A stretch of DNA of 64,000 nucleotides from Flammeovirga kamogawensis (GTDB taxonomy: Bacteria > Bacteroidota > Bacteroidia > Cytophagales > Flammeovirgaceae): the NCBI RefSeq assembly GCF_018736065.1, contig NZ_CP076130.1, positions 134,001 through 198,000 of the forward strand, given 5' to 3'. The notes beneath the pieces are model-generated. The model made no database searches and was not told the DNA's origin. It was given only the letters and a program-made list of their open reading frames with translations. Position 1 is the first letter of the stretch. Each line of letters opens with the position of its first letter. Shown here in pieces: positions 43,520 to 61,235 of this stretch. Position numbers and translations under genes: made by a program.

Positions 43520-46500
43520 TTATTTCTTCACAATCTTTTTCTCTATGGATAAGATTGGTGTATTTATTTTAAGGATATATAAACCAGAAGTAAGGTTTGG
43601 AAGAAGAATATTTTGTTCTCCTTCTAACTCTTTTTCTAGTACTTTTTTACCTGTAGAACTGTAGATGCTAAGCACATATTTTTCTGATGTTGGAGGAACA
43701 ATTACTGTTCTATCCTCTACCAAAGTAGGGTAGACGTTCCAAAGTGCAGCAAGTTCATCTTCTAAACCATTTACATCTTCGTCGTCCTCTTCTTCTTGTG
43801 CATCTGCAATAATTTCTTCTGTAGGGAGTGTAACTTCAACTGCTACAGATTTACCTGTTTCATCACTAGCTAGAATAATAATATCCAAATCGCTAATAAG
43901 GTCTTCCACTCTTGCTCCAGAAGGAACTTTAGAAGGATCAACAGTAAAAGTCATTGTTTCAGGATCGAAAATAATCCAATCTGGTAGAGGATCACCGTTG
44001 GCGAGCATTACTTGGTAAGTAACTTCTCCTTCCAGCTCTTCAAATACTTCAATCGCAATTTCAACAATTACAGTTCCGTCGTCTCCTTCAGTTGTTTGTA
44101 CTTCTTCTTCGGTAATTTTTTCTACCTCTTCAAAGTTATATACTACGTTAATTATTGTATTGTTTTCTGAAAGGTGATGCGAACGGTTATTACTTTCGTC
44201 TTGAGCAACAAAAGCTTCTGCAACGCCATTTACAAATAACTGATAGTAAATAATACTTTCAGGTAATGCTACAGATGTAGTGTAAATGTTAGACGAATCA
44301 CTTTTTGTAAGAACTACTTCATCAGCCCAATTATCAAAAGAACCTTTGATTGAGACAACGTCATTAGCAACATCAAAATCTGAGAAACTGATTGCTGATT
44401 GCATATTTACTTGCCAAATGGCTGTAAATCGTTCTTCTGGCATTTCATCATTAAACCAAAACGAAATGGTTTGCTGACTATTTGCTTTTACGTATGCTCT
44501 AGTTTCATTTTCTTCTGTGATATCCCATACCGTTGAATCATTTGGATATTGGTACATCACTTTGAAAGAGAATGTAGAATCTGCGTCAAATTTCTGAGTT
44601 GTAAAGCTGTACAATCCATCTTCATCTTGCAATAAAGGGTAACTAGAAAACTGTGTTCCATCAAATAACTTGATGCGTAATTCAGCTCCTTCAATTGTAG
44701 GGTCAAATTTTTCTAAAGTGATTTGATGTGCCATATTTACTTTAAAAATAACGGCAGTATTATCAACATCTTCATCATCAAAATCAAAAACTATTTGTTG
44801 TGTTTCTCCTTGTACAGGAACAATTGACCTCACTTGTCCACCTCCTGGATATTCATGCATAAGATCATTCCAAGAACCATTTATTCTTGTTTTAAATGTA
44901 ATGGTGTCTTCTGCGTGATTATAAACTTCGAAACTTCCTTGGTAAATATTGTCGTTATTATTGTCTGATAAAGTGATTGGATTTGTACTCCATTCAGTCA
45001 TTGAACCAACAATATCTAACGTATCTTTAGCTGGGTTGAAACGACCATTTTCAATCATTCCGTTCATATCAACCGTAAAAGTTAACCCTGTGTAATATTC
45101 CTCATTATTGAAATGGTGGAATAGAGTTGTGGCAGATACAACTTTATGAGCGCTGAAATTGTTTTCGAATGTTTCTGGTTCTGTATTTAATTGATATGCC
45201 AATTTATAGACATAAGAAGCATTTACTTCTTTTATCTGCGATGAAGTTCCATATACATAATCGTATTTGTTCGTTAACGCATATCCTTTGATAGGTTCTT
45301 CAGCTTGTTCATTTTCATAAACATATAGAAGTACCGCACCTTGATTCGTTAACTCATTTTCAAGTACAATTTTAGACATGTCTACCTCAAAAGAAGTGAT
45401 AGGATTGTCTATATTTTCTCTATCATAAAAGATAGCTAACGTATTTTCACCTCTTTCTAGATTTAGAAGTCTATTGTTTGTAAAACCTAATTCACTTTCG
45501 TTCCAACTATCATTTAATCTAATTTTAAATTCAGATGATAAAGTAGGAATAGAATCTATAAATACGGAATAAATAAGGTCTTGGTCGTCATCAGTCAAAA
45601 CAATATCATTTTGCCAATTCGATAGGCTTCCAATAAAGTTTACAGCATGACTATCTGGATTAAAACGATTGTTTTCTGCTGCCCAACGCATATCAACGGT
45701 AAGTTGAAGCGAATTAACAAGGGTTTCGTTATTGAAAGCAAAAGTGACTAAATTGCCAGAATCCGGAAGTACCGAATAATTTCTAAAGGCATATTCTTCT
45801 ACTTTTTTAGGAGCACTACCTTCAATTTCAGTTTCAATTACCACCTTGAAAGTGTAGGCTTCATTTACATTTTTAAGCTGAGAAGTTGCCGTATAAATAC
45901 CATTTTCTTTTAATTTTAAGAGGTATCTATGTTTAACGATAGTACTGTCTTCTCCCATTACTTTTAAATGCAAAGATTGCTTTTCATCAGTAGGGTTGTA
46001 CAATGCTGTATAGATAGCTTTTTCCATGTTTACCTCAAAAGTAGTAACAGGGTTAGAAAGCAGTTCATCATTATAAGAATAACTGATTACATTTTCCTGA
46101 TTAGGGGTGATATATTCTGTTCGGGTAAGAGCAGTACCTCCATATTCGTGACTACCAGGAACCCAAGTTCCGTTCTTTCTAGCTTTAAAATTAATGGTAT
46201 TCAATAAATCATTTTCTACTTTGATAGTATAAATACCGTCATTATTGTCATCATTTAGTTTGAATTGCTCTCCATCTCCCCATCCATTAAAATCGCCCGC
46301 TATATCAACATAATCTTCTGATGGATTAAATCTATTTTGATTAATCTCAGCGTTCATATCTACTAAAAATTCGACACTAGTAGGAAAGGTGTAATCATCA
46401 AAAGTATCAGTGATAGTATTTGTACCAGTGGCATCTACAATGTAGTTTCTGAAATCATTTTCTCTGTAGACTATTCTGCCTGTATCTAGATATTCAACAA

Positions 46501-48529
46501 TACGGTATTTATAAATATACTCTTCTGCATCGTCTAGAAGTTGAATACTTGTTGTGTACACATTACCTGTATCCGCTTTTAGTATATAATGATAAGCTTG
46601 AAAATCACTTTCTTCTTTAAAGACAATGAGATCAATTAACCTAGGAGTATCAAAATTACCATCTGCAATTTGCTTTGATAAATCGACTTTAAAAGTAGTG
46701 ATAGGGTAAGCAGAATTTTCGTCTCCATAGAAAACATCCATTACATTATGACCAGATGTTAATTGGATTTTTCGATCTAATGCTTCACCAAATTCGTGTC
46801 GTCCATGTTCCCACGAATTATTGATTTTACATTTAAATTCAAGGTCTAATTGCGAAAATCCTTCTAAATGAACCGTATAAATACCATCCTGATCAAGGTC
46901 TTGGAAGGAGATTCTATTCTCTCCATTTCCATAAGCATTAAAGTTTGAAGCAAGATCTAAAGTATCTATAGCAGGGTCAAAAATTCCTCTAGCTATAGGT
47001 AAACTCATGTCAACATTTAAATCAAGGCTATTGAAGTCATTATTAAACCATTTTTCTAAATATTGCCCATCAGCAGGTACAACAAATGTATTCCATTCAT
47101 CTTCAAAAACGACTTTATTATTCTCATCATTTTCCTTATATAAAAATGAGTAATTATAGATTTGATCTGTATTCTTAGCACGTAATTGAATACCGTATGT
47201 ATTTGCTTCTAGTTGTTCAAGTAAATAATAATTTTTGATTTTACCAGAAGAAGTAAAAATAGCCAATTCTACATGGTCTATTTCTGGATCAAAATTACCA
47301 TCTGCAATTTGCTTGTCCATATTTACGGCAAAAACCACTTCAGGATTATTGATATATTCATCGTTATAAGCAAAATCAAAGCTATAATGAATATTGTCAT
47401 CTACATAAAACGTTCTTGCACTATCTCCTCTAAATTCATGTTCTCCCCAATTCCAAGAGCGGTTCAATCTTGTTTTAAATTCAATATTGCCAATTTCGTT
47501 TGTAGAGAAATCTGCAGAATAAATTCCATCTTCATCCGTATCTACTAATAGCATAGAACCTCCCCAATTGTTAAAGTTACCAGCAACATCAAGAGAATCA
47601 GTAGCAGGGTTAAATGTACCTTTTTCAATTTGGTAATTCATATCTACATTTAAAGTAAATGTACACAGAACAAGACCTTCTGTAGCTAATGTATCCACTA
47701 TATTATTGTCACTTTCTGTAACAATATATTCTCTTATATTCTGCTCATAGTAATCTACTAAACTATACGTATAATCTATAGTGTCTTCTGCAACAAAAAG
47801 ATACGATGATATAGCGTAACTAGTATCGTCAATAGATTTTAGATCATAGGTAGTAGCTACTTGGGTTAACCTATTAGTAATAGTTACTTTTGGAGCAGTA
47901 CCCACAGGGAAATCACCAATTGAAAGAGCATCTGTGATGTCTAATTGGAACGTAACCATAGGGTTATGGAGGTTCTCATTATTGTACCAGATGTTTATGG
48001 TGTTTTCTCCAGCCTCTAGTTCAATAATTCTATTGTTTCCTCCTGGAAATTCTGCGGTATTCCAAGAGGCATTAATACGAACTTTATACTCGTACGAGTA
48101 CGCATCAAATTCTGGTACATGAGCATAGTAGATGCCATCAGAATCGGGATCTGATAAGAATAAACCACCTTGCCAATCGTTCATGCTACCTGCAATGTCT
48201 AGACTATCAGTAGAAGGATTAAAAAGACCTTCGTTAATAGCCCAGTTCATGTTTACATAAATATCTATGGTGTTACTTTGTGTAGTATCTACTGCGGCAG
48301 AAGTACTCATAAAGGCACTAGAATTTACATAATTACCACCTTGCGTTGCTAAGTTTAAGTTACCAACAGTAGCAAAATGTTGGTAATTACCACCAGTAGA
48401 AAGTGCACCCCCAATAGCTTGTGTACTATGGGTTTCTTGAATAATTTGGGCATTTGTATCGGGTAGAATACAGATGGTAAAAGTAAGTAAAAAGATAACT
48501 CTTACAGCCCTTAATATTTTATTTATCAT
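43520..48529 (-). CDS. Giant T9SS-secreted protein of alternating beta-sandwich repeats
   Basis: The 1669-residue protein has a signal peptide (about 1-27) and a short GGALSTGGNYQHFATVGN segment common at the start of T9SS cargo. Residues 88-1465 hold seven A modules, starting near 88, 288, 496, 716, 940, 1146 and 1370. Each has the pattern FNPxxDxLDIAGxFNxW, then DxDxDGIY, then FKxRxNxSW. The pattern resembles starch-binding or AMPK-type glycogen-binding (CBM20/48-like) folds. Six B modules alternate with them (TFxVDMxKxIxxGxFDP, then a YxYK-type strand). A dystroglycan/putative-Ig-like domain (about 1480-1570), an acidic linker and a T9SS sorting domain (about 1595-1669) follow. There is no catalytic domain. 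It is likely an adhesive or glycan-binding surface fibre. It starts 8 bases after the S74 protein gene. Confidence 0.85.
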   Translation of the reverse strand: MINKILRAVRVIFLLTFTICILPDTNAQIIQETHSTQAIGGALSTGGNYQHFATVGNLNLATQGGNYVNSSAFMSTSAAVDTTQSNTIDIYVNMNWAINEGLFNPSTDSLDIAGSMNDWQGGLFLSDPDSDGIYYAHVPEFDAYSYEYKVRINASWNTAEFPGGNNRIIELEAGENTINIWYNNENLHNPMVTFQLDITDALSIGDFPVGTAPKVTITNRLTQVATTYDLKSIDDTSYAISSYLFVAEDTIDYTYSLVDYYEQNIREYIVTESDNNIVDTLATEGLVLCTFTLNVDMNYQIEKGTFNPATDSLDVAGNFNNWGGSMLLVDTDEDGIYSADFSTNEIGNIEFKTRLNRSWNWGEHEFRGDSARTFYVDDNIHYSFDFAYNDEYINNPEVVFAVNMDKQIADGNFDPEIDHVELAIFTSSGKIKNYYLLEQLEANTYGIQLRAKNTDQIYNYSFLYKENDENNKVVFEDEWNTFVVPADGQYLEKWFNNDFNSLDLNVDMSLPIARGIFDPAIDTLDLASNFNAYGNGENRISFQDLDQDGIYTVHLEGFSQLDLEFKCKINNSWEHGRHEFGEALDRKIQLTSGHNVMDVFYGDENSAYPITTFKVDLSKQIADGNFDTPRLIDLIVFKEESDFQAYHYILKADTGNVYTTSIQLLDDAEEYIYKYRIVEYLDTGRIVYRENDFRNYIVDATGTNTITDTFDDYTFPTSVEFLVDMNAEINQNRFNPSEDYVDIAGDFNGWGDGEQFKLNDDNNDGIYTIKVENDLLNTINFKARKNGTWVPGSHEYGGTALTRTEYITPNQENVISYSYNDELLSNPVTTFEVNMEKAIYTALYNPTDEKQSLHLKVMGEDSTIVKHRYLLKLKENGIYTATSQLKNVNEAYTFKVVIETEIEGSAPKKVEEYAFRNYSVLPDSGNLVTFAFNNETLVNSLQLTVDMRWAAENNRFNPDSHAVNFIGSLSNWQNDIVLTDDDQDLIYSVFIDSIPTLSSEFKIRLNDSWNESELGFTNNRLLNLERGENTLAIFYDRENIDNPITSFEVDMSKIVLENELTNQGAVLLYVYENEQAEEPIKGYALTNKYDYVYGTSSQIKEVNASYVYKLAYQLNTEPETFENNFSAHKVVSATTLFHHFNNEEYYTGLTFTVDMNGMIENGRFNPAKDTLDIVGSMTEWSTNPITLSDNNNDNIYQGSFEVYNHAEDTITFKTRINGSWNDLMHEYPGGGQVRSIVPVQGETQQIVFDFDDEDVDNTAVIFKVNMAHQITLEKFDPTIEGAELRIKLFDGTQFSSYPLLQDEDGLYSFTTQKFDADSTFSFKVMYQYPNDSTVWDITEENETRAYVKANSQQTISFWFNDEMPEERFTAIWQVNMQSAISFSDFDVANDVVSIKGSFDNWADEVVLTKSDSSNIYTTSVALPESIIYYQLFVNGVAEAFVAQDESNNRSHHLSENNTIINVVYNFEEVEKITEEEVQTTEGDDGTVIVEIAIEVFEELEGEVTYQVMLANGDPLPDWIIFDPETMTFTVDPSKVPSGARVEDLISDLDIIILASDETGKSVAVEVTLPTEEIIADAQEEEDDEDVNGLEDELAALWNVYPTLVEDRTVIVPPTSEKYVLSIYSSTGKKVLEKELEGEQNILLPNLTSGLYILKINTPILSIEKKIVKK

Positions 48530-48537: not shown

Positions 48538-50424
48538 TTATTTAGATTGAACCTCTGAAAGTAATTGGAGCATTTGTGCTTGTAATACTTTAATTTGAGC
48601 TGAATTTGTTTGAGCTGTTTCTAAATTAGCTTTTAAAGAAGCATTTTCTGCTGTTAAAGCTTCAACTTTTTGATTTAACTCTTTGATTGCTTCTATAAGA
48701 ACAGCAACGGTTTGTGCATAATGCACAGCTTTGTAACCATCTTTATCTGTTTTTACTAACTCAGGTAAAACCTCTTCAACCTCTTGAGCAATAAGCCCAA
48801 TTTGAAGGTCTGTATCAAATGATTTTTTAGGAAATTGATCTGCTTTGTAGAAGTAAGATACCCCTTTTAATTGCATCACTTTTTCTAAGCTATTTTGCAA
48901 AGGATTAATGTTTGATTTATAACGACGGTCTGAAGAAATTGTAGTGAAATCTGTAGAAGTGTTTAGAATTAATTCTCCGCCATTTTGATCCCATAAAATT
49001 ACTTCACCTCTGTCTGTTCCATTCTCATTTACAGTAGATATTTTAGCCATTTCTCCATTAGTAGTATTAAAAATAATATGTTCTTTAGAGAAAGTAGCAC
49101 TACCATTTGAGCTGTTGAAATCTATAACATCTTTATTAATATTGATTGATGTATTTAGTGTATCTCTAAATTCTAAATGATCGTGAGTAAACTGTGTAAA
49201 TAAGTCAGCATTAATATTGTGGAGGTCAATACTTGGGTATTCAGTGCCTTCCCAATCTTTATTGATTTGTACTTGAAGAATTGGCCAAGTAGCTGTTGAA
49301 GTTTGTGATAATTCGAAAATAGGCAAATCATTGTCCCAATTTTTTCCGTATAAATTTATGCCGCTTCCATTTGCCCCACTATGCCATAATCCAAAGGCCG
49401 ATATTTGTGTTTTTTGATTGTCAGAATTCCCTGCAGAAAGCAACAGATCACCATATTCAGCAGCTTTACCATGATCAAAATTTACAGATAAATTAGCCAT
49501 TGACTTGTACCATTCCCCACCATCAGATGTTTCTCCAAAAAGTTGTAGCATAGGGCGGTTAATATTATCCCAAGATTGTCCCATAAATTGGAAATTCGGA
49601 GTATTGTGTCCCCATAAAAACATTTCTGCCGCGAATTGATCGCCATTATTATTTGGTTTGACACTTAGATCAAAACCTCCCTGGGAATCTGTAGATGATT
49701 GTAATTTTAGGGAACCACTTTCTGCTATTTTTCCACCAGTATTATCATGAACTTCATTAATTTGTAATTCAACAAGTGGTTTATGCTCTACGTCATACCC
49801 TTCTAAATGGAAGAACGGTAAACCATTTTCTTCCCAAGTTCTAAAACCAGTACCAACCCAAGCACCATTATTCCCATACATAGATAACATTCCTCCAGTA
49901 TTTTCTCCATTTCCATAAGGAAATAGCCATGCTTTATTAGCTCCAGCATTGTCATAAATAGAGATGCCTCCACCTCCATATTGATTGATATCTAGAGATA
50001 CTTTTTTACGTCCATCTTCACTATAAAGATTAACATTATTGGCATCGACTAATGTACCAATACTATCATTGGCGTGTTTAAACTTCATTTCTGAAGGCAT
50101 CAATTGTGGTTTCACGATTGGCGCATACAATGTTATATCATCTAATTTTACATCCTCAATTTCTATAGATAATGTTGCTTCTCCAGCTTCATTGTATATA
50201 TCACCTTCAATAGGCGTGATTGACCCAAGGACAACAGCATAAAAACCATCAGTAATTTGGACATTTTCATGAGTTTCTGTCCAGTTAGAAATAGAAAATG
50301 TAATATTTTTAGTAGTAGTCAGCACAGTTCCATTCTCGGTTAGTTTGCCTTGAAATGGTATTTTTTGGGCATGAAGAGAAAGGGCAAAAAATGCCATAAA
50401 TAACACAGAATAAATAAGTTTCAT
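48538..50424 (-). CDS. Secreted protein with C-terminal peptidase S74 intramolecular chaperone
   Basis: The protein has 628 residues from the ATG at 50424, where a good signal peptide begins (MKLIYSVLFMAFFALSLHAQ). The longer frame from 50514 adds a non-signal stretch. After an N-terminal beta domain (PFQGKLTENG) comes a Gly/Asn/Trp-rich beta-helix-like region to about 470. A peptidase S74 domain follows, with the putative self-cleavage pair S498 and K503 (SDRRYK) and the IGLIAQEVEEVLPELV block. A long C-terminal coiled coil of about 60 residues closes the protein. S74 domains help trimers of phage tail spikes fold, then cut themselves off. Here it sits in a cellular secreted protein. It is first in an operon with the giant repeat protein. 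Confidence 0.88.
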   Translation of the reverse strand: MKLIYSVLFMAFFALSLHAQKIPFQGKLTENGTVLTTTKNITFSISNWTETHENVQITDGFYAVVLGSITPIEGDIYNEAGEATLSIEIEDVKLDDITLYAPIVKPQLMPSEMKFKHANDSIGTLVDANNVNLYSEDGRKKVSLDINQYGGGGISIYDNAGANKAWLFPYGNGENTGGMLSMYGNNGAWVGTGFRTWEENGLPFFHLEGYDVEHKPLVELQINEVHDNTGGKIAESGSLKLQSSTDSQGGFDLSVKPNNNGDQFAAEMFLWGHNTPNFQFMGQSWDNINRPMLQLFGETSDGGEWYKSMANLSVNFDHGKAAEYGDLLLSAGNSDNQKTQISAFGLWHSGANGSGINLYGKNWDNDLPIFELSQTSTATWPILQVQINKDWEGTEYPSIDLHNINADLFTQFTHDHLEFRDTLNTSININKDVIDFNSSNGSATFSKEHIIFNTTNGEMAKISTVNENGTDRGEVILWDQNGGELILNTSTDFTTISSDRRYKSNINPLQNSLEKVMQLKGVSYFYKADQFPKKSFDTDLQIGLIAQEVEEVLPELVKTDKDGYKAVHYAQTVAVLIEAIKELNQKVEALTAENASLKANLETAQTNSAQIKVLQAQMLQLLSEVQSK

Positions 50425-50511
50425 CTTAGTATTAGATATATAGTAAAAGGTAAATTTGTCTAATGATAATAAACTAGAGAAACAGCGCTGATTAACTTTT
50501 ATTAACCACAA

Positions 50512-50519
50512 CAAATATA
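50512..50519 (-). promoter_or_regulatory. Candidate -7 element of the S74 operon
   Basis: Read on the minus strand this is TATATTTG, matching TAnnTTTG, about 88 bases before the preferred start at 50424. It also supports the shorter start, because the longer frame (50514) would begin inside the promoter. Confidence 0.5.
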
Positions 50520-51006: not shown

Positions 51007-51924
51007 ATGAGTAGCAAACAACTCAATATAGTAGTTCTATTATTTATCTTCTTCTTTATTAATGCATGTAACACTTCAGTAGAGTTGCCTGGTTTAAAAG
51101 AAGACATTGAGATAGACGATACTTTTACGGCTTGCCTACTTGGAGACGAATCCCAAGATTATTTAGAGGTAGTAACTTGGAATATTGAGCATTTTCCAAA
51201 GCATGCCGAAACACTTTCTTTTGTAGCAGGTACAATTGTAAATAGTTCTTATGACCTATGGGGCGTACAAGAAGTAGAAGAAATTAATGATCTGAAAAAG
51301 ATTACAAAAATTGACCCTCGTTATTCTGTAATTGTTGATAATGATGTAGCAAAAGGTGTAAATGGAAATTACCATTTAGCCTACGTATATAGAAATGATC
51401 ATTTAGAAATTATTGATCAAAAGATATTATCTGCAGGAGAGTTTGATGGCTACTACTTTCCTAGAAGACCTTTGTGGGTGAAATTTAAAAATAAAATTAA
51501 TAATGAAGAGTTTGTAGTTATCAACCTTCATTTAAAGTGTTGTGGCGGTTCTCAAAATAGCATGAGAAGAACAGAGGCAGGGCTAATACTAAAGCGTTTT
51601 CTTGATAAGGAACACAGTGCTGATAAAGTGATTGTATTAGGTGATTACAATACTGTAATTGCCCCTTATACAGATTCGGATATGCAGCACTTTTTAATAG
51701 ATAATCAAAATTATAAATTTTCAGATCAACTACTAGCAGATTCGAATGAGCCACATCAGTGGTCTTATCCAAATTGGCCAAGCCACATTGATCATATCTT
51801 AATGACAAACGAATTGTTTTCTCAATTTAAAGAAGCAATTACATTACCTCTAGATAATTGTTCTGGGTACTATGATGCTAAAGTTAGTGATCATCGGCCG
51901 GTATTGAGCATTTTCCGGAACTAA
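51007..51924 (+). CDS. Endonuclease/exonuclease/phosphatase-family lipoprotein
   Basis: The lipoprotein has 305 residues with lipidation at about C21 (FINAC). The EEP-fold motifs are in order: TWNIEHFP (first metal ligand Asn), VQEVEE (metal Glu), INLHLKC, GDYNT (catalytic Asp/Asn), HIDHI and the closing SDHRPV. It therefore cleaves a phosphodiester or phosphomonoester outside the cytoplasm. It is the first gene of a nuclease-rich rightward series, 21 bases before a second EEP gene. The two are divergent in sequence and probably have different substrates (for example polynucleotide versus nucleotide). Confidence 0.88.
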   Translation: MSSKQLNIVVLLFIFFFINACNTSVELPGLKEDIEIDDTFTACLLGDESQDYLEVVTWNIEHFPKHAETLSFVAGTIVNSSYDLWGVQEVEEINDLKKITKIDPRYSVIVDNDVAKGVNGNYHLAYVYRNDHLEIIDQKILSAGEFDGYYFPRRPLWVKFKNKINNEEFVVINLHLKCCGGSQNSMRRTEAGLILKRFLDKEHSADKVIVLGDYNTVIAPYTDSDMQHFLIDNQNYKFSDQLLADSNEPHQWSYPNWPSHIDHILMTNELFSQFKEAITLPLDNCSGYYDAKVSDHRPVLSIFRN

Positions 51925-51945
51925 TACTTTATTTACCAACTTATT

Positions 51946-52992
51946 ATGACTTCTTCTTTTAAACTTCTGATTATAACTATCACACTTACTTTTTTAACTA
52001 ATGTCTCTTTTGCACAAACAGAGAATTACGAAGTGTATAGTATCGCTTTTTATAACTTAGAGAATCTATTTGACACATTAGATACTCCTGGTAAAAATGA
52101 TAAAGATTTTTTACCCAATGGCTCTTATAAGTGGACAGGTAAAAGATATTTAGAAAAGCAAGATAGAATGGCTTCTATTGTTGCAAAACTTGGTGCAGAA
52201 CTTACAAAAACAGCCCCAACAGTAGTAGGGTTTAGCGAAATAGAAAATGCTGCAGTTTTGGAGGATCTTATTAAGCAAGATGCACTAAAAAAGTATAACT
52301 ATGGTATTTGCCACATAGAATCTCCCGATAAGCGTGGAGTAGATGTTGGACTTATTTATAGAAAAGAGTTTGTTGATATAAAAAAGGTGTCAGCTAGAGA
52401 TTTAAGAATAAAAGAAACTTATGCTGGAGATAATTGGGAATTTGCAACAAGGAATCAATTGATTGTAGAAGCTACTTTAAAAGGTGAAGACTTTGCATTT
52501 TTAGTAAATCACTGGCCTTCTAGAAGAGCAAAATCTCCTTACAGAGAAGCAGCAGGAACATTAAATAGATCAATCATTGATTCTCTGAGAAGTGATCATC
52601 CAGGTTTACACTGTATCACCATGGGAGATTTAAATGATGACCCTACAAATAAAAGCGTTTCAAAGTCGTTAGGCGCAATCGGAGATGCTAAAAAACTATC
52701 AGATAAAAACTATCTATATAATCCTTGGTATAACATGTACAAAAAGGGTTTAGGTACATTAGCTTATAGAGATAGTTGGAATTTATTTGATCAGATAATT
52801 CTTACAAAAGAACTAAAATTAGACAAAAAAGACCTCTTTTTTTACAAAGCTGAAATCTGTAATTTCCCTGAATTAAAAAATAAAGAAGGGCGTTACAAGG
52901 GCTATCCATTTAGAACTTATTCTGGTGGTAATTATTCGGGTGGTTATTCAGACCACTTTCCTGTTGTTATCTATCTATTGAAAAAAATATAA
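51946..52992 (+). CDS. Second endonuclease/exonuclease/phosphatase-family secreted protein
   Basis: The protein has 348 residues with a cleavable signal peptide of about 1-24, so it is periplasmic or secreted. EEP motifs are FYNLENLFDTLD, GFSEIEN (metal Glu), RGVDVGLIY, LVNHWPSR (catalytic His), MGDLNDDP and the C-terminal YSDHFPVV. This type is common in marine Bacteroidota next to TonB-dependent receptors. It follows the first EEP gene by 21 bases and precedes a TonB-dependent receptor by 28. A role in breaking down nucleic acid or its fragments is inferred from these neighbours. Confidence 0.88.
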   Translation: MTSSFKLLIITITLTFLTNVSFAQTENYEVYSIAFYNLENLFDTLDTPGKNDKDFLPNGSYKWTGKRYLEKQDRMASIVAKLGAELTKTAPTVVGFSEIENAAVLEDLIKQDALKKYNYGICHIESPDKRGVDVGLIYRKEFVDIKKVSARDLRIKETYAGDNWEFATRNQLIVEATLKGEDFAFLVNHWPSRRAKSPYREAAGTLNRSIIDSLRSDHPGLHCITMGDLNDDPTNKSVSKSLGAIGDAKKLSDKNYLYNPWYNMYKKGLGTLAYRDSWNLFDQIILTKELKLDKKDLFFYKAEICNFPELKNKEGRYKGYPFRTYSGGNYSGGYSDHFPVVIYLLKKI

Positions 52993-53020
52993 AGCACTTT
53001 ATTCCTCTTTTTATTTAATT

Positions 53021-55741
53021 ATGAAACATCTATTTACTATACTTCTTCTTTTCTCACAACTACTTGCATTTTCGCAAGGTAAGTTTCAGAAAGGAACTGT
53101 TTTGCTATCAGGATCAGAGCAACCAGTTGTTGCTCTCCAAGTAGCAGTAGACGGTAACTTGTACCTTACAAACGAAAACGGTGAATTTAGAATTCCAGAA
53201 AGTGAAGTGACACCTTCCTCTATGGTTCATATTTCTACCGATGGATTTGAACAAATTGATCTACCATTTTCTAACGGTATGATTGTTCATTTACAATCGG
53301 AAGTTGATGAGGCAAGTACTATTGCTTTATCATTAACTGATTTGGATGGAGGTGATGGTGATACACAATCGACACCAGGCTTACTATTTTCTTCTGGAGA
53401 TGCTTATAGTTCAATTGCAGGTTATGCATGGGGACCTTATTGGTTTAGAGCTCGTGGTTACCAATCTAATTATATGAACATATTTTTTGATGGGATTAAC
53501 ATGGCCTCACCAGAAAGAGGCTATGCTTCTTGGTCACTTTGGGGTGGTTTAAATGATGTAACTAGAAATAAAGAAGTTACTTACAATATGGCTCCAACTA
53601 ATTTTACTTTTGGTAATATTGGCGGAGCAACAAATATTATTACTGATCCCTCTCAGCAACGCCCTGGTTTTAAAGGGAGTTATTCTTTAAGTAATTCAAG
53701 CTACCAAAATAGAGTAATGCTTACCTATTCTACTGGTTTACTAGAAAATGGTTGGGCATTTACGGTTTCTGGCTCAAGAAGATGGGCTCAAGAAGGCTAT
53801 GTAGATGGTACAACATATGATGCATGGGCTGGATTTGTAAGTGTTGAGAAACAATTTTCGGATAAGCATAAAATGGTTTTAACAGCTTTTGCAGCACCAT
53901 CAACTCGTGGTCAGCAAGGAGCAACCGTTCAAGAAGCTTATGACCTTAAAGGTTCAAATTATTATAATCCGTATTGGGGTTATCAAGAAGGTGAAAAAAG
54001 AAATAGCCGTGAAAAAACAGTAACATCTCCTCAATTTATCTTGAAAGATAAGTGGAAGATCAACGAGAAGTTATCTTTAAGTACTTCTGTAGGTTATACA
54101 TTAGGGAAAGAAACAAGAACAGCTTTAAATTGGTACGACGCCCCAGACCCTCGCCCAGATTATTATAGAAATATGCCTTCATATCAGTACGATCAGGGTA
54201 ACGATACTGCTGGTAATATGTTAACAGATCTATGGACTTCTGATGGTTATGGACAAGTAAATTGGGACTTCTTTTATAAAACAAATAGAACAAACCCAGA
54301 AACTGTTCCTGTAGATTGGACAGACCCAACTGGAGAAACTATTACAGGAAATAGAGCACACTATATTGTCGAAAAGAGAAATTTAGATTCTCATCGTATT
54401 GATATTAATCCAACTTTAACATGGGATATTAATCCAACTTTAAAGGTCAATACAGGTATTCAATACCAATATTATGTTGGTAATAATTACAATACTGTAG
54501 GAGATTTATTAGGTGGCGACTTTTGGGTAGATATTGATAATTTTGCAGATAGAGATTTTCCTGATCCATTATTAGCAATCAATGATCTTAATAATCCGAA
54601 TGTAATTAAAGGAGAAGGCGATAGAATTGGTCATGATTATGATGCAAATATGCAAACTGCAAATTGGTGGGGCCAAGTAAGGAAATCTTTTACTAAAGGA
54701 TCTGTTTATGCAGGTGTTAATCTTACAAACACTACAATGTATCGTTTTGGCAATAGAAGAAAAGGTCTTTTCCCTGATGATTCATATGGAAAATCTGATG
54801 TTTTAGATTTCCTAGATTATGGTGTTAAGCTAGGTGGAGAATATTTTGTAACAGGCAGAAATGTACTTACAGCAAATGCTTCTTATTTTACAAAAGCACC
54901 TTATTTTGTAGATAGCTTTACATCTTTAAGAACAAGAAATGAAACGGTAGATGACTTAGTATCATCAAATGTTTTCTCTACTGATATTAATTATTACTAT
55001 AGAGGAGAGCGTTTAAAAGTAAGAGCTTCAGCTTTCTATACAACTATTTCTGACCAAACAGATGTTATTAGTTATTATGATGATGCTTACCAAAACTTTG
55101 TCAATTATATTCTTACTGGGCAAGGTCAAGAGAATAAAGGATTGGAGCTAGGCTTACAATATAATATTACTTCAGAGTTAAGATTAAAAGCTGCGGGTAC
55201 TTATGCTAGCTATATGTATAACGCCAACCCTTATGCTACAACAACTGTAGATAACAGTTCTGCAATTTTAAGTGATAATGAGAAAGTCTATTATGATGGC
55301 AGACATGTTGGAGGTTCGCCAGAAGTAGCGGGTTCAATTGGTTTAGAATACTGGTCTAGAAATTATTGGTTTATTGGAATACAAGGCAATTTCCTTGGCG
55401 ATAGATATGTAACTTTAAACCCTGCAAGGTATACAGATCGTGCTATAGAAGAACCAGGTGTAGAGTATGGATCTGATCAATACTATGCTATTCTTAATCA
55501 AGAAAAAATGCAAGATTCTTTCACGTTAGATCTTTCTGGTGGTAAAAGCTGGAAAATTAAGGATTACTTATTAAGAGTAAACTTAAACGTGAATAATATT
55601 CTTAACAATCAAAATATAGCAACTACAGGTTTCCAACAATATCGCTTTGATTTTGTAGATGGTAACCCAGAAAAATTCGCAAATAAATATTATTACGCCC
55701 AAGGAATTAGAGCTTTTTTAAATGTAGGATTAAGCTTCTAG
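53021..55741 (+). CDS. TonB-dependent outer-membrane receptor of the nuclease locus
   Basis: The protein has 906 residues with a signal peptide of about 1-19. A carboxypeptidase-regulatory-like domain (about 22-95) is followed by a plug with YQSNYMNIFFDGINM and FGNIGGATNIITDPS, then a 22-strand-type barrel ending in an aromatic residue (NVGLSF). It is not a SusC-type receptor, and no SusD partner is adjacent. It should import a product of the neighbouring nucleases, such as oligonucleotides, nucleotides or nucleosides. The substrate is an inference from gene order only. Confidence 0.9.
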   Translation: MKHLFTILLLFSQLLAFSQGKFQKGTVLLSGSEQPVVALQVAVDGNLYLTNENGEFRIPESEVTPSSMVHISTDGFEQIDLPFSNGMIVHLQSEVDEASTIALSLTDLDGGDGDTQSTPGLLFSSGDAYSSIAGYAWGPYWFRARGYQSNYMNIFFDGINMASPERGYASWSLWGGLNDVTRNKEVTYNMAPTNFTFGNIGGATNIITDPSQQRPGFKGSYSLSNSSYQNRVMLTYSTGLLENGWAFTVSGSRRWAQEGYVDGTTYDAWAGFVSVEKQFSDKHKMVLTAFAAPSTRGQQGATVQEAYDLKGSNYYNPYWGYQEGEKRNSREKTVTSPQFILKDKWKINEKLSLSTSVGYTLGKETRTALNWYDAPDPRPDYYRNMPSYQYDQGNDTAGNMLTDLWTSDGYGQVNWDFFYKTNRTNPETVPVDWTDPTGETITGNRAHYIVEKRNLDSHRIDINPTLTWDINPTLKVNTGIQYQYYVGNNYNTVGDLLGGDFWVDIDNFADRDFPDPLLAINDLNNPNVIKGEGDRIGHDYDANMQTANWWGQVRKSFTKGSVYAGVNLTNTTMYRFGNRRKGLFPDDSYGKSDVLDFLDYGVKLGGEYFVTGRNVLTANASYFTKAPYFVDSFTSLRTRNETVDDLVSSNVFSTDINYYYRGERLKVRASAFYTTISDQTDVISYYDDAYQNFVNYILTGQGQENKGLELGLQYNITSELRLKAAGTYASYMYNANPYATTTVDNSSAILSDNEKVYYDGRHVGGSPEVAGSIGLEYWSRNYWFIGIQGNFLGDRYVTLNPARYTDRAIEEPGVEYGSDQYYAILNQEKMQDSFTLDLSGGKSWKIKDYLLRVNLNVNNILNNQNIATTGFQQYRFDFVDGNPEKFANKYYYAQGIRAFLNVGLSF

Positions 55742-55801
55742 GGTAAAAATTACAAACAATTCATTTATTCAGTTTCGTGTTCTTTTAAACTTCTTCGAAC
55801 C

Positions 55802-58800
55802 ATGAAAAACAAACAATTATTTGTCTTCTTAAAGCTATTAATAGCAACTTCATTTCTAGGTTTTATTATCTCGTCTTGTAATAAAGATGAACCAGAAGGT
55901 CCAGGTAATCCTGGTACTGATCCGGAAAACCCTATAGAAATGGAAACAACACATACTATCATGCAATTACAAGAAATGTATGATGGTTCTGATTTATTTG
56001 ATATTACTGAAGATGTAGTCATCGGAGGTGTTTTATCTTCGTCAGATTCTACAGGTAATGTATACAAGTCACTTTTTATTCAAGATGATAGTGGGTACGG
56101 TATACAACTTAAAGTAAACAAAACAGATCTTTATGCTGACTACAGTATTGGTCAAACTATTTATGTAAAATGTAATGGTTTGATGATGGGACAGTACGGA
56201 GGACTTATCCAATTAGGTGGAGAGTATGAAGGCAAAATTGGTAATATCGAAGAAGATGTAATCGAAGATCATATTTTTGGAGGTGCTAAAGGTGCTGCTC
56301 CAACAGCGGTTACACTTGATTTAGATAACAAACCTTCGGCTATCGAAGCATTATATAGTACTTGGGTTTCTATCCCTAACGTTCAATTTGTTGATGTAGA
56401 TTCTACTTTTACAAATGGAACTTTTACAACAAATAGAAATGTAACTACTGCAGAAGGAAATACAGTAACAGTAAGAACATCTAACTATGCAACTTTTGCT
56501 AACGAAGTTTTACCTTCAAAAAGTGGTGTTATAGAAGGTGTTTTAACTGCTTATAATGGTACTTTACAATTAACAATTAACGAAGTAGCAGATATTAATT
56601 TCACGGGAGATCGTTTTGAAATTACTGCAGGTGAAGGCGAAGGAACATTGGCTAACCCTTTTGATTTAGAAGCTGCTGCTGCACGTTTAGGTCAAACAGG
56701 TGTTTGGGTAAAAGGTTACATTATTGGTTCTGTAAACGGAGTATCTTTAGAAGATGACTTTGTAGCTGGAGCGAGTGGAGAATCTTCTGCATCAAATTTT
56801 GTAATTGCTACTTCAGCAACAGAGACAGATCCAACAAAAGGAATGCCTGTACAATTAACTACTGGTTTTGTACGTGATGGTTTAAACTTAAAAGAGAATC
56901 CAACATTAATTGGTAAAGCAGTTTGGGTAAAAGGTGATATCCAAAATTATTTCAATATTCCTGGTGTTAAAAATGTAGTTTCTTACTCTTTAGATGGTAC
57001 TACAGAGCCAGATGCTCCTGAAGGATTAATTGGTCAAGGTGAAGATATCATGGGTGATCAGTTAACAAATACTACACTTAATTTTTCTACTTGGAATGAA
57101 GTGAAGTCATTGGCAATGTGGGAAGCAAAAGACATGTCAGCTGCTGTTAATGCATATGGTAAAGGAGCTACAATTTCTTGGATGGTTTCTAAAACAGCTA
57201 TTGATTTCTCATCAGTTGCAGATGCTCGTTTAATTGTAACAGAAGAGTTGAAATTCTTTACAGGTTTTAGTGATATTCAGGTATTAGCTTCATCGGATTA
57301 TTCTGGAAGTGGAGATCCTACTACTGCTACATGGACTGCTTTAGAAGTTGATGGTACTCGTGCTGAAACGGGTGTAATTGAAACGCAATTTAAGGGGACA
57401 GGTACTGTATATATTGCTTTTAAATACACAGCAACTGATGAAGCTTCGATGTCTTGGACTATTGAAACAGTAAAATTTGATCAAAAAGAGGTTGAAGTTC
57501 CTGCTGAAGGTGATGGTACTTTAACGAATGCTTATAATGTTCCTGCAATTAGAGCAAATCAAGGTGATAAGGACAATAAGGATTACAAATGGGTGAAAGG
57601 AAAAATTGTAGGTTATATAAAAAGTAATAAGTTTGTTCCTGGAGCTACAGATGCTGAATTAACAAACCTAGCAATTGCAATTGATAGCGATGAAACATCT
57701 GCTTCTAAAATAATTACTGTTCAATTGCCTTCTGGTTACATTAGAGATGCATTAAACCTAGGAGAGAACCCAGCAATGCTTAATAAAGATGTTTGGTTAA
57801 ATGGGTCTTTAGAAACTTACTATGGTTTTGCAGGGGTTAAATATTTACAATCTTATTCATTGGATGGGGTTACGGAAGAAGGTGACGCAACTCCTCCTCC
57901 TACTGGAATTGTAGGTCAGGGTGAGCCAATTGCCGGTACTGCTTTAACTGGAACTTCAATTAACTTTACAACTTATAATGTTGTAGAATCTGCAGAAATT
58001 TGGAAAGCATCTGCTGGTAAAGCAAGTATTAATGGCTATAATAACGGTGCAAATACATCGTGGTTGATAACTGCTTCTACTGTAGACTTCTCTGGTTTTA
58101 CTGCTGCAAGTCTAATCGTTAAAGAAAATATCAATTATGGAAAAGGTTTAGATAAGGTAATGGTAAAGTATTCTTCTGACTATACAGGGACAGGAGACCC
58201 AGCAGCAGCTAATTGGACAGCAATGCCAGTTTATGGTGATAGAGCTGATGGTGGTGCAACAACAACTCAATTTGATGGTAGTTCTTTAGGAGCTGTTTAT
58301 GTTGCGTTTATCTATACAAACAATGATAATACTGATGCATCTTCTTGGAGTATTGAATCTGTAGTTGCAGGTGAGAAAGAAGAGGATACTACACCCCCTG
58401 TAGATCCAAACCCAGAAGGTATAAACCTAGGAGATAACGCAGTATCTGGATTTAGTGACTTAATTATTTCTGAATATGTAGAAGGTTCTTCTTATAATAA
58501 GTTTATTGAGATCTTTAATGGGACAGGTTCTGAAATAGATTTATCAGATTATTCTTTATCAAAAGATTCTAATGGGAGTGATGTATTTACTAAAGTAGCA
58601 TTAGAAGGTACTTTACCAAATGGAGCTACTCTTTTATTATCGAATAGCCAAGCAGATTTAACATTACTTCCTAATGGAGTTACGTCTAGAAATTCTTCTG
58701 CTGTTAATTTTAATGGAGATGATCAAGTGGCTCTATTTAAGGGAGATGTTGAAATAGATAGAATTGGTATTGCTGGAGATATTTCTTTTGGAATAGACGT

Positions 58801-58927
58801 TACTTTTAGAAGAGCAGTATCTATAAGGGCTCCTAAGCCTGGAGAAAATGATCCAAGAGATAATGGTGAATGGGATAGCTATCCTAAAAATACAACTGAG
58901 GACCTTGGGTCTCATACTATTAATTAA
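55802..58927 (+). CDS. Large surface lipoprotein with DUF5689, OB-like repeats and a lamin-tail domain
   Basis: The protein has 1041 residues, with a lipobox ending at C26. The next residues, NKDEPE, form an acidic lipoprotein export signal, so surface exposure is likely. DUF5689 spans about 50-265. A duplicated block follows: an OB-fold-like unit (DUF6359-like; GTLANPFDL... and GTLTNAYNV..., with VKGYIIG/VKGKIVG) plus a choice-of-anchor-J-type jelly roll, at about 275-560 and 570-865. A lamin-tail domain ends the chain (about 885-1035, SDLIISEYVEGSSYNKFIEI). OB and lamin-tail domains in bacteria are often linked to extracellular nucleases. It has no catalytic motif and is probably the nucleic-acid-binding component. 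Confidence 0.85.
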   Translation: MKNKQLFVFLKLLIATSFLGFIISSCNKDEPEGPGNPGTDPENPIEMETTHTIMQLQEMYDGSDLFDITEDVVIGGVLSSSDSTGNVYKSLFIQDDSGYGIQLKVNKTDLYADYSIGQTIYVKCNGLMMGQYGGLIQLGGEYEGKIGNIEEDVIEDHIFGGAKGAAPTAVTLDLDNKPSAIEALYSTWVSIPNVQFVDVDSTFTNGTFTTNRNVTTAEGNTVTVRTSNYATFANEVLPSKSGVIEGVLTAYNGTLQLTINEVADINFTGDRFEITAGEGEGTLANPFDLEAAAARLGQTGVWVKGYIIGSVNGVSLEDDFVAGASGESSASNFVIATSATETDPTKGMPVQLTTGFVRDGLNLKENPTLIGKAVWVKGDIQNYFNIPGVKNVVSYSLDGTTEPDAPEGLIGQGEDIMGDQLTNTTLNFSTWNEVKSLAMWEAKDMSAAVNAYGKGATISWMVSKTAIDFSSVADARLIVTEELKFFTGFSDIQVLASSDYSGSGDPTTATWTALEVDGTRAETGVIETQFKGTGTVYIAFKYTATDEASMSWTIETVKFDQKEVEVPAEGDGTLTNAYNVPAIRANQGDKDNKDYKWVKGKIVGYIKSNKFVPGATDAELTNLAIAIDSDETSASKIITVQLPSGYIRDALNLGENPAMLNKDVWLNGSLETYYGFAGVKYLQSYSLDGVTEEGDATPPPTGIVGQGEPIAGTALTGTSINFTTYNVVESAEIWKASAGKASINGYNNGANTSWLITASTVDFSGFTAASLIVKENINYGKGLDKVMVKYSSDYTGTGDPAAANWTAMPVYGDRADGGATTTQFDGSSLGAVYVAFIYTNNDNTDASSWSIESVVAGEKEEDTTPPVDPNPEGINLGDNAVSGFSDLIISEYVEGSSYNKFIEIFNGTGSEIDLSDYSLSKDSNGSDVFTKVALEGTLPNGATLLLSNSQADLTLLPNGVTSRNSSAVNFNGDDQVALFKGDVEIDRIGIAGDISFGIDVTFRRAVSIRAPKPGENDPRDNGEWDSYPKNTTEDLGSHTIN

Positions 58928-58965
58928 TCCCAATAAATAATTGGTGGCTTAATCAATAAGTCAAT

Positions 58966-58993
58966 CCCCATGAAAGTTGATTCTTTCATGGGG
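58966..58993 (+). terminator. Strong hairpin between lamin-tail and endonuclease genes
   Basis: CCCCATGAAAG (58966-58976) and CTTTCATGGGG (58983-58993) form a perfect 11-base stem with a 6-base loop. No T tract follows, so it may be a partial terminator or a stabilising 3-prime hairpin that tunes expression of the next gene. Confidence 0.6.
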
Positions 58994-59039
58994 AACTAAA
59001 CAACTTCCATCAGAAATAAAATCGTAAAAGATATTTCCT

Positions 59040-61235
59040 ATGCATCGTTTTATAATAAATAAAAGAATTTTAGTATTTCTACTAGGAGCTATATTTTTCT
59101 CTTGTGTAGATACAGACTATAAAACACCTCAAGAGGTATCCCCAGAACCGATAGCTCCCGGTACAGCTACTATTAGCATTGCAGATTTAAAAGCAATGCA
59201 TAATGGAAGAGATAATGACACTACATCAATTCCAGACAATACTGTTATTGTTGGTCAAGTAGTATCTTCTGACAGAGATGGTAACATCTATAAAGAAATT
59301 TATTTACAAGATAGTACGGCAGGTATTCTAATTCGTGTTGATGCTGCTCCTTTGTATACACAATTTCAAATGGGACAGCAAGTTGCCATTGTTTGTGATG
59401 ATTTCGTTTTAGGTTCTTATGCATCTATGGTGCAATTGGGTATTCCATCTTTGTACAATGGAACTCCAGCTGCAGGTAGAATTCCAGCTCCAATTGTTGG
59501 ACAGTACTTTGTAACAGGAACTTTGGATTCTGTTGTTGTTGCAGAAGTATCTGTAAAAGAATTACAAGAAAATTTAGATACTTACGCTGGTAAAAGAGTT
59601 AAGATTGCTAACATTCAAGTGAGTAAGAGCGATGAAGGAAAAACCTATGCAGATGCAGAAAAAGAACTTACTCAAAATAGATATTTTAATGATGGCTCTA
59701 CAACTCAAGACATCATTTTAAGAACCTCAGGATATTCTGATTTTGCAGGTGATACTCTTCCTTATGGTATGGGTACAATGTATGGTGTTGTATCTCGTTT
59801 TCGTGATGATGCACAAATATACATCAATACACCCGAGACAGATATGGTCAATTTCACGGTCATTGATGGAGGTACACCAGATGATAGTACTGTTGTAACC
59901 CCTCCTACGGTTGTAGATTTTATCAATGAAAGTTTTAATGGAACAAAATATGATGAAATTGTTTTAGAAGGTTGGAATAACATAATTGAAACAGGTACTA
60001 AGGCTTGGTTCTATAATGAATACCAAGGTAATGCTTATGCCAATTTATCAGTTTTTAAAGCAGGTGAGGCTAGAAAAGTTTGGTTAATAACACCTGTATT
60101 GAATGTACTTGGAGCTGAAAATAAAACAATTTCATTTAAATCAAGATCTGAATACTTAAAAACAGCAACATTAAAAGTAATGGTTTCTGCAGATTATGAC
60201 GGGGCTTTGGCACCATCAGAATATTCTTGGACAGAAATAAACCCTACAATTGGAACAGGTAACGAAGACGGTTATGGACCTTGGACTTCTTCTGGAGATT
60301 TTGATATTTCATCTTACGGAAATGTTGTCGTAGCATTTTTATATGATGGGGAAGAGGGAGTTGAAGATGGAGGATTTTCGATAGACGATTTTAAATTTAA
60401 TGAAGGTCATTCAGGAGGAGAAGTTGACCCTACAGAATATTACAATGCTGTTGATGGGTTAACAGGTTATACTCTTAAAACAGGATTGTATCAAATCATT
60501 TCATCAAATACAACAGTGTTAGAATATACTCCAGGTGTATGGGAAGCGTATGCTACAACTGATGACAAATATGGTCAAGGACAAATAATCTGGGACATGT
60601 ATAGTGATATTCCTGATCCAAATAACCCTTCAGTTCCTGATGCTGCACAACCAAATGAATATGAGTATGATTATGGTCAAGGCGGAGATCAGTGTACAAA
60701 TACCCCAGGATATGAAGAAGGTTGTTATAATAGAGAACACTCATTTCCTAAAAGTTGGTTTGATGATGGCTACCCAATGTATACAGATATTCATCATGTT
60801 GTACCTTCAGATTCTTACGTAAATACAAGAAGAAGTAATTATCCTTACGGTGAAGTTGGAAATGCCACATGGACATCTACAAACGGAAGTAAATTAGGTA
60901 GTGCAGTTTCAGGATTAGGCTACTCGGGTACAGTTTTCGAACCGATTGATGAATATAAAGGTGATTTTGCAAGAATCTATTTTTACATGGCCACTCGATA
61001 CGAAAATGTCATCGATGGTTGGGATAGAAATAGTAGCAGTGCAGATGATGTATTGAATGGTACTTCAAATCAGGTATACGAAACTTGGTATTTAAATTTA
61101 ATGAAGAAATGGCATACAAATGATCCAGTTTCACAAAAAGAAATTGAAAGAAATGAAGCCATTTTCTTAATCCAAGGAAATAGAAATCCATTTATTGATC
61201 ACCCAGAATATGTTACAGAAATTTGGGGGAATTAA
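59040..61235 (+). CDS. Endonuclease I-family lipoprotein with DUF5689
   Basis: The protein has 731 residues, with a lipobox ending at C22 (FFSC). A DUF5689 domain (about 45-265) is shared with the preceding gene. A choice-of-anchor-J-like jelly roll (about 290-450) and an endonuclease I domain (about 465-731) follow. The nuclease shows the His-Me finger layout: NREHSFPKSWF with likely catalytic H567, then DIHHVVPSD and the TRRSNYPYGEV segment. Such enzymes cut DNA and RNA without base specificity and need a divalent metal. Its lipid anchor and DUF5689 suggest it works on the cell surface together with the lamin-tail protein. Confidence 0.92.
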   Translation: MHRFIINKRILVFLLGAIFFSCVDTDYKTPQEVSPEPIAPGTATISIADLKAMHNGRDNDTTSIPDNTVIVGQVVSSDRDGNIYKEIYLQDSTAGILIRVDAAPLYTQFQMGQQVAIVCDDFVLGSYASMVQLGIPSLYNGTPAAGRIPAPIVGQYFVTGTLDSVVVAEVSVKELQENLDTYAGKRVKIANIQVSKSDEGKTYADAEKELTQNRYFNDGSTTQDIILRTSGYSDFAGDTLPYGMGTMYGVVSRFRDDAQIYINTPETDMVNFTVIDGGTPDDSTVVTPPTVVDFINESFNGTKYDEIVLEGWNNIIETGTKAWFYNEYQGNAYANLSVFKAGEARKVWLITPVLNVLGAENKTISFKSRSEYLKTATLKVMVSADYDGALAPSEYSWTEINPTIGTGNEDGYGPWTSSGDFDISSYGNVVVAFLYDGEEGVEDGGFSIDDFKFNEGHSGGEVDPTEYYNAVDGLTGYTLKTGLYQIISSNTTVLEYTPGVWEAYATTDDKYGQGQIIWDMYSDIPDPNNPSVPDAAQPNEYEYDYGQGGDQCTNTPGYEEGCYNREHSFPKSWFDDGYPMYTDIHHVVPSDSYVNTRRSNYPYGEVGNATWTSTNGSKLGSAVSGLGYSGTVFEPIDEYKGDFARIYFYMATRYENVIDGWDRNSSSADDVLNGTSNQVYETWYLNLMKKWHTNDPVSQKEIERNEAIFLIQGNRNPFIDHPEYVTEIWGN

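What the first reader, a model, noticed from the sequence alone, without database searches (positions are those of the whole stretch)
51007..61235. Candidate extracellular nucleic-acid utilisation locus
Two EEP hydrolases, a non-SusC TonB receptor, an OB-like/lamin-tail surface lipoprotein and an endonuclease I lipoprotein lie in one direction. DUF5689 is shared by the last two. The set reads like a PUL analogue for DNA or RNA: a surface nuclease, a surface binder, phosphodiesterases and an importer. No characterised system with this composition is known to me.
Basis: inference. Interest (0 to 1): 0.75.

Follow-up and report, generated by a model that had tools for sequence, protein, structure and literature searches.

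The report
Nuclease-armed bacterial DNA-uptake gene cluster
Five neighbouring genes look like a cell-surface device that grabs, cuts and imports DNA, and its core is related to an outer-membrane pair that another bacterium of the phylum needs for genetic transformation, which makes DNA entry in these bacteria directly testable.

Summary
The receptor (53021-55741) and the DUF5689 lipoproteins are homologues (27-36%) of a Riemerella anatipestifer pair, RA0C_RS04915/RS04920 by gene order; each is essential for natural transformation by markerless deletion (PMC8459023). In named R. anatipestifer DNA the order is ComEC, two genes, EEP3, receptor, DUF5689 lipoprotein. EEP3-receptor-lipoprotein recurs across Bacteroidia, usually with no Endonuclease I or DRGH-type nuclease nearby. 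The window's family carries such nucleases: Endonuclease I here, an unrelated DRGH nuclease in a paralogous locus of the same genome. Two other families have a nuclease gene beside the triad. Nucleic acid as ligand is well supported, most likely DNA. Whether it is food (as with Vibrio Dns/Xds) or genetic material is open; I favour scavenging of extracellular DNA by a modified uptake machine. New variant of a known kind.

The parts
51007..51924 (+). EEP1: DNase I-like (endonuclease/exonuclease/phosphatase) lipoprotein, 305 aa
   Evidence: PF03372 40.9 bits; lipobox-like INAC and motifs GDYN, SDHRP present (motif meaning recalled); weak match to ExeM/NucH model, 39 bits against cut-off 300
51946..52992 (+). 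EEP3: secreted or periplasmic EEP hydrolase, 348 aa; conserved partner of the receptor
   Evidence: PF19580 352.5 bits; GDLN and SDHFP motifs; 37% identity to the R. anatipestifer neighbour gene
53021..55741 (+). TonB-dependent outer-membrane receptor, 906 aa; homologue of the R. anatipestifer receptor taken as RA0C_RS04915
   Evidence: 31% identity over 838 aa, E 6e-126; AlphaFold/Foldseek to TonB transporters; CarboxypepD_reg and Plug in aligned relatives, not in the window protein itself
55802..58927 (+). LipoA: surface-type lipoprotein, DUF5689 - 2x DUF6359 - lamin tail domain, 1041 aa
   Evidence: Pfam; mature N-terminus CNKDEP resembles the lipoprotein export signal of Bacteroidota (recalled)
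55946..56596 (+). DUF5689 of LipoA
   Evidence: residues 49-265, 195.5 bits
58448..58771 (+). Lamin tail domain of LipoA; LipoA residues 885-1038 also match the exonuclease ExeM model
   Evidence: PF00932 60.7 bits; NF033680 86.7 bits against cut-off 1300
59040..61235 (+). LipoB: lipoprotein, DUF5689 - choice-of-anchor J - Endonuclease I, 731 aa; its first half is a homologue of the R. anatipestifer lipoprotein taken as RA0C_RS04920
   Evidence: Pfam and NCBIfam; 27% over 432 aa, E 5e-27
59163..59834 (+). DUF5689 of LipoB
   Evidence: residues 42-265, 192 bits; AlphaFold pLDDT 82.6 for residues 22-465
59922..60395 (+). choice-of-anchor J domain of LipoB
   Evidence: NF038128 58.2 bits over cut-off 30; MAM-like folds among Foldseek matches
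60462..61208 (+). Endonuclease I domain of LipoB with REHSFP and NTRRSN motifs
   Evidence: PF04231 290.3 bits; solved Endonuclease I relatives such as 2pu3 and 1oup; motifs

Best explanation
The locus encodes a surface DNA capture, cutting and outer-membrane import complex. It is a nuclease-armed derivative of the module that R. anatipestifer needs for natural transformation. Proposed order: the DUF5689 lipoproteins LipoA and LipoB bind extracellular DNA at the surface; the Endonuclease I head of LipoB cuts it; the TonB-dependent receptor passes the fragments through the outer membrane; EEP1 and EEP3 trim them to oligo- or mononucleotides and phosphate. The main use is probably scavenging of extracellular DNA, with transformation possible as a shared or ancestral function. 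Shown: gene content, homology to the Riemerella pair, conservation of the triad, repeated association with nucleases. Inferred: DNA binding, the import step, TonB energy, location of each enzyme, and the final fate of the DNA.
For: Receptor and lipoprotein are homologous to proteins of named R. anatipestifer DNA whose gene order fits RA0C_RS04895 (ComEC) to RS04920. Markerless deletion of RS04915 or RS04920 drops transformation below detection, wild type 5.4x10^-5 (PMC8459023, section 18). EEP3 lies within 1 kb of the receptor in 22 of 26, 18 of 20, 61 of 64, 11 of 11 and 7 of 10 loci of five overlapping sets, though PF19580 gives only 1-3 matches per genome in 20 of 20 genomes. Nuclease swap: the paralogous locus carries Endonuclease_NS where the window has Endonuclease I. 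Separate nuclease genes sit beside the triad in family f12 (Endonuclease_NS - EEP3 - receptor - DUF5689, one strand) and f62 (Endonuclease I after the lipoprotein). V. cholerae needs its extracellular nucleases Dns and Xds to use DNA as phosphate source (PMC3212620 passages); Shewanella ExeM combines LTD, OB-like and EEP parts and its EndA serves use of DNA phosphorus (PMC6085458 passages); that Dns and EndA are of the Endonuclease I family is recalled.
Against: Identity to the Riemerella proteins is 27-37%, so function may have changed. No paper or result seen here shows DNA binding or transport by any member; the Riemerella uptake model is called speculative by its authors. The OB-fold reading of DUF5689 is below threshold, and the Foldseek list shows MAM/jelly-roll folds, not OB folds, among its top matches. 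No nucleoside transporter or nucleotidase is recognised among the five genes. Flavobacterium johnsoniae has the homologues but was not competent under the conditions tested. ComEC and DprA matches in the genome say little, since 10 and 11 of 14 control genomes have them.
Confidence: 0.6

Rival explanations
1. It is primarily the natural-transformation outer-membrane apparatus of this bacterium; the nucleases only nick or trim DNA to start uptake, as proposed for surface nucleases in other competent bacteria (recalled: pneumococcal EndA, Bacillus NucA).
For: Homology to the essential Riemerella pair; all four DUF5689 copies detected in the genome lie in the two nuclease-bearing loci, so no plain copy is left for transformation; ComEC, DprA and DUF1343 matches are present; ComEC lies near the module (two genes beyond EEP3) in 3 of the 6 genus g123 loci read (L116-L118 yes; L114, L115, L119 no).
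Against: The extracellular nuclease Dns hinders transformation in V. cholerae (passage). Most receptor loci outside the window's family show no Endonuclease I or DRGH nuclease relative within 6.5 kb, so surface cutting is not needed for the basic function. ComEC is found in 10 of 14 and DprA in 11 of 14 control genomes.
Confidence: 0.25
2. Biofilm remodelling or nuclease defence: the surface nucleases degrade extracellular DNA to detach cells, and the receptor serves as anchor or imports something else.
For: Dns/Xds and ExeM act on biofilm DNA (passages).
Against: The receptor is the kept partner and TonB transporters import; the form without such a nuclease nearby is the commoner one in the loci read. 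No PADLOC match for any of the five.
Confidence: 0.1
3. The receptor imports an unrelated nutrient and the nucleases are chance neighbours.
For: The receptor has no solved close relative by sequence; its model resembles siderophore, copper and PQQ transporters about equally.
Against: Conserved adjacency in five locus sets, two different nuclease families on the same scaffold, and the transformation phenotype of the homologous receptor.
Confidence: 0.05

Closest known systems
RA0C_RS04915/RA0C_RS04920 natural-transformation pair of Riemerella anatipestifer (PMC8459023)
   Same: Homologous outer-membrane receptor followed by a DUF5689 lipoprotein, EEP3 as neighbour
   Different: Riemerella lipoprotein is 469 aa with DUF5689 as its only Pfam match; no second DUF5689 protein or EEP1 found in the stretch held, EEP3 is divergent, ComEC is nearby
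Dns and Xds of Vibrio cholerae; EndA and ExeM of Shewanella oneidensis
   Same: Extracellular nucleases for use of DNA phosphate; ExeM has LTD, OB-like and EEP parts (passages); Dns and EndA as Endonuclease I family is recalled
   Different: In ExeM the LTD, OB-like and EEP parts form one protein; here they are split over separate genes with a dedicated outer-membrane receptor
Putative DNA-degradation loci of Candidatus Izemoplasmatales (PMC8289736)
   Same: Clustered DNA-degrading genes, a protein with nuclease and lamin tail domains and transporters, compared by the authors with PULs (passages)
   Different: Not Bacteroidota; ABC transporters; no TonB receptor or DUF5689 in the passages seen
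SusC/SusD polysaccharide utilisation loci (recalled)
   Same: Surface lipoproteins, hydrolases and a TonB receptor in one cluster
   Different: No SusD match and no SusC-type model match in the five proteins at E<=0.1

Membership tests
Riemerella-type transformation module | Homologous receptor (RA0C_RS04915) | tested here: met
   31% over 838 aa, E 6e-126; same 69-row side of a branch with SH-aLRT 100, midpoint root. The tag is assigned by gene order and description, not by sequence
Riemerella-type transformation module | DUF5689 lipoprotein immediately downstream on the same strand | tested here: met
   an NF052645 match lies downstream in 38 of 39 receptor genomes of the phylum sample
Riemerella-type transformation module | Needed for natural transformation | not testable with these tools
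   Deletions reported for R. anatipestifer (PMC8459023)
SusC/SusD PUL | SusD-like lipoprotein paired with a SusC-type receptor | tested here: not met
   No SusD or SusC match among the five at E<=0.1
ExeM/Xds nuclease | Full-length ExeM/NucH model match | tested here: not met
   39.2 bits against cut-off 300 for EEP1; 86.7 against 1300 for LipoA
M949_1556 lipoprotein (NF052645) | Score over the curated cut-off of 475 bits | tested here: not met
   169.3 and 177.1 bits: related, outside the named family
Endonuclease I (PF04231) | Domain match over cut-off with catalytic motifs | tested here: met
   290.3 bits; REHSFP and NTRRSN (catalytic role recalled)
TonB-dependent receptor | Plug plus beta-barrel | tested here: met
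   Fold; Plug in 8 of 24 aligned members at E<=1, not in the window protein itself

The most novel reading that the evidence does not exclude
A TonB-dependent receptor imports DNA polymer or fragments across the outer membrane. In this lineage a transformation importer has been turned into a DNA-feeding locus by fusing interchangeable surface nucleases to its DNA-binding lipoprotein: a true utilisation locus for DNA in Bacteroidota.
Probability: 0.35. Interest if true: 0.85.

Novelty: new variant of a known kind. Interest (0 to 1): 0.62.

Why it matters
How DNA crosses the outer membrane in Bacteroidota is unsettled; in the papers seen here the Riemerella pair is known by transformation-null mutants. 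This locus links that pair to nucleases by gene fusion and by repeated association, which points to nucleic acid as the direct ligand. It also adds EEP3 as a third conserved partner; in the Riemerella paper the matching gene RA0C_RS04910 is mentioned once, as the upstream gene, and is not in the table of deletion mutants. Together this gives a testable route for DNA import and for recycling of extracellular DNA.

Tried and rejected
Chance neighbours: rejected by conservation and copy number. Defence system: no PADLOC match. SusC/SusD PUL: no such domains. DUF5689 as a proven OB fold: not established; the model has a strand-helix order compatible with OB barrels (my reading), but the top 50 Foldseek matches are mostly MAM/jelly-roll-like, which I ascribe to the choice-of-anchor J part although no aligned ranges are shown, and OB matches in Pfam stay below cut-off (one of 29 members matches an OB family at E 0.02). 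ComEC beside the module as a general rule: rejected; among the loci it was found only in L116, L117/L135 and L118. Promoter and terminator scan: 44 against 47.9 and 7 against 4.9 expected, no signal. Literature, held open-access library only: DUF6359 no paper, DUF5689 one, RA0C_RS04915/RS04920 one; by titles and abstract beginnings, the listings held no paper on a TonB-linked DNA utilisation locus in Bacteroidota.
Full report
What is there. Five + strand genes with gaps of 21 to 112 bp: an EEP lipoprotein, a second EEP hydrolase (PF19580, here EEP3), a TonB-dependent receptor, LipoA (DUF5689, two DUF6359, lamin tail) and LipoB (DUF5689, choice-of-anchor J, Endonuclease I). The receptor has no Pfam match of its own; at E<=1 its aligned relatives carry the carboxypeptidase regulatory-like domain (21 of 24) and the Plug (8 of 24). 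Its model (pLDDT 69, pTM 0.71) matches TonB transporters at E down to 2e-25. Catalytic-type motifs are present in both EEPs and in the Endonuclease I domain (their meaning is recalled).

A second locus in the same genome. DUF5689 was found four times in the genome, twice here and twice in a locus on contig C2. That locus has EEP3 (79% identity), receptor (77%), LipoA (52%) and LipoB (59% over 454 aa) and no EEP1 match, and its LipoB ends in a DNA/RNA non-specific endonuclease with a DRGH motif. Two unrelated nuclease families on one scaffold argue that the scaffold handles nucleic acid.

Link to natural transformation. The only paper in the held library that names DUF5689 is a transposon screen in R. 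anatipestifer. RA0C_RS04920 (DUF5689) and RA0C_RS04915 (outer membrane, carboxypeptidase regulatory-like domain) are adjacent; markerless deletion of either gives transformation below detection against 5.4x10^-5 in wild type (PMC8459023; I read sections 18, 20 and 21 and passages). A scan of named genomes gave L135, R. anatipestifer CCUG25054, whose 18,805 bases are identical to part of L117. The order there is ComEC, two genes, EEP3, receptor, DUF5689 lipoprotein. This fits tags RS04895 (ComEC) to RS04915/RS04920, so EEP3 would be RS04910, which the paper calls the upstream gene. The assignment rests on order and description; no tool gave the tagged sequences. Window against L135: receptor 31% over 838 aa (E 6e-126), EEP3 37%, LipoA 36% over 216 aa, LipoB 27% over 432 aa. 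In the same species tonBA or tonBB mutation lowers transformation; the authors ascribe the tonBB effect to iron (PMC8383284, passages).

How widely the module is kept. In 247 genomes drawn over the phylum, 41 match the receptor profile at E<=1e-40. By my reading of that table 39 match over most of its length (E<=1e-160; G222 in two pieces with stops); G162 and G005 match in part. In 38 of the 39 an NF052645 lipoprotein match lies just downstream on the same strand; the exception is G017. In the family of G012, 143 of 148 genomes match the receptor at E<=1e-60.

Counts in fetched loci. Set A: 26 of the 38 other receptor genomes of the phylum sample (27 loci; L057 of G017 holds no receptor). Set B: 20 loci that I chose from the 143 genomes. 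Set C: 64 named loci. Set D: 11 loci of the window's family, without the window itself. Set E: 10 loci that I chose from 16 matching genomes of other families in the order. EEP3 within 1 kb: 22 of 26, 18 of 20, 61 of 64 (two of the three misses, L179 and L196, are short contigs that begin inside the receptor gene), 11 of 11, 7 of 10. Lipoprotein within 1 kb on the same strand: 26 of 26 (set A was fetched by that match, so this figure is by selection), 20 of 20, 64 of 64, 11 of 11, 9 of 10. The sets overlap (for example L117 and L135, L126 and L178, L044 and L151). Left out were 11 fetched loci (L069-L072, L075-L081) around weak NF052645 matches, mostly to the C-terminal part of the model; of these only L071 showed a receptor relative, at 25%. 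PF19580 gives 1 to 3 matches per genome in 20 of 20 genomes; with some thousands of genes per genome, chance adjacency would be well under 1% (my estimate). In L241 the divergent neighbour is another EEP with a T9SS tail (24.2 bits, cut-off 24.5).

The nuclease-armed form. In the window's order 26 of 291 genomes match the receptor at E<=1e-50, including all nine listed members of the window's genus and one of nine listed same-family genomes of other genera. Ten loci from nine of these genomes were read: nine carry Endonuclease I with EEP3, receptor, LipoA and LipoB, and eight of the nine have EEP1 (not L234). The tenth, G421, has the non-specific endonuclease form, without EEP1. In L227, L229, L230 and L232 the DUF5689 lipoprotein and the Endonuclease I lipoprotein are separate genes. 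Flanking genes vary between members. In 11 genomes picked because they hold the locus (10 of the family plus G479), Endonuclease I lies in it in 10, and in 6 it is the only copy. The 12 family receptors form one group (SH-aLRT 100) on the 69-row side (100) that holds Riemerella (quick tree of 79 receptors, midpoint root, L240 not included).

Nucleases elsewhere. Relatives of the two nuclease domains lie within 6.5 kb of the receptor in 3 of 26, 0 of 20, 0 of 64, 11 of 11 and 1 of 10 loci; other nuclease families were not looked for. The four outside the family are G230 and G238 (non-specific endonuclease lipoprotein, EEP3, receptor, DUF5689 lipoprotein on one strand, gaps 7 to 22 bp), G479 (Endonuclease I gene after the lipoprotein; its receptor frame is broken), and G103 (an Endonuclease I relative, 32%, beyond EEP3), which may be chance.

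Mechanism. Shown: the homologies, the conserved neighbourhood and the nuclease exchange. Inferred: the lipoproteins bind DNA at the surface; the nuclease head cuts; the receptor imports; EEPs trim. V. cholerae uses DNA as phosphate source through Dns and Xds (PMC3212620, passages). In Shewanella EndA is the nuclease mainly needed for that, and ExeM, with LTD, OB-like and EEP parts, adds little in the supernatant (PMC6085458, passages). That Dns and EndA are Endonuclease I proteins is recalled. The V. cholerae paper says that Dns hinders transformation, which is why I lean towards feeding for the armed form. Bacteroidota are reported DNA degraders in marine sediment (PMC8289736, passages). Against a simple transformation reading, F. 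johnsoniae has the homologues but was not competent under the conditions tested (PMC8459023 section 21, PMC7965970 abstract).

Weak points. DUF5689 as an OB-fold DNA binder is a guess supported by sub-threshold matches and strand order. The identities to Riemerella are low. No promoter or terminator signal rose over shuffles. The genome has ComEC, DprA and DUF1343 matches; these occur in 10, 11 and 3 of 14 control genomes.

Verdict. It is a new variant of a known kind: a nuclease-armed form of the Riemerella-type DNA-uptake module.

Noticed in passing
window 43520-48529 (-): 1669-aa protein with pullulanase X25, CBM48 and AMPK1-CBM-like modules and a T9SS tail; probably a multi-domain glucan-binding surface protein.
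   Followed up: no
window 48538-50514 (-): 658-aa protein with a C-terminal Peptidase_S74 chaperone domain, divergent to the locus; phage genes around it were not looked for.
   Followed up: no
L073 and L074, 9205-15253: One-strand run: non-specific endonuclease lipoprotein, EEP3, receptor, DUF5689 lipoprotein, in genus g36 of family f12; a separate association of nuclease and uptake module.
   Followed up: partly
L231 and L232 (G461): Two tandem copies of the locus; one LipoA is 1763 aa with five DUF6359 stretches, so binding-domain number varies.
   Followed up: no
L240 8861-11599; G222 C19:401312-404102; L184 7926-10872: Receptor genes in pieces; whether decay or assembly error was not tested.
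   Followed up: no
L082 and L083 (own genome): Three more distant receptor relatives with no DUF5689 or EEP3 relative in the 20-kb stretches; two of them are in the tree, outside the uptake group. Substrate unknown.
   Followed up: no
L064 9468-11495: Lipoprotein with two DUF5689 stretches and a lamin tail domain beside a receptor: LTD also joins the module outside the window's family.
   Followed up: no
L228 5536-8595 (G500): LipoA homologue that ends in a CBM_4_9-type domain where the window's LipoA has a lamin tail.
   Followed up: no
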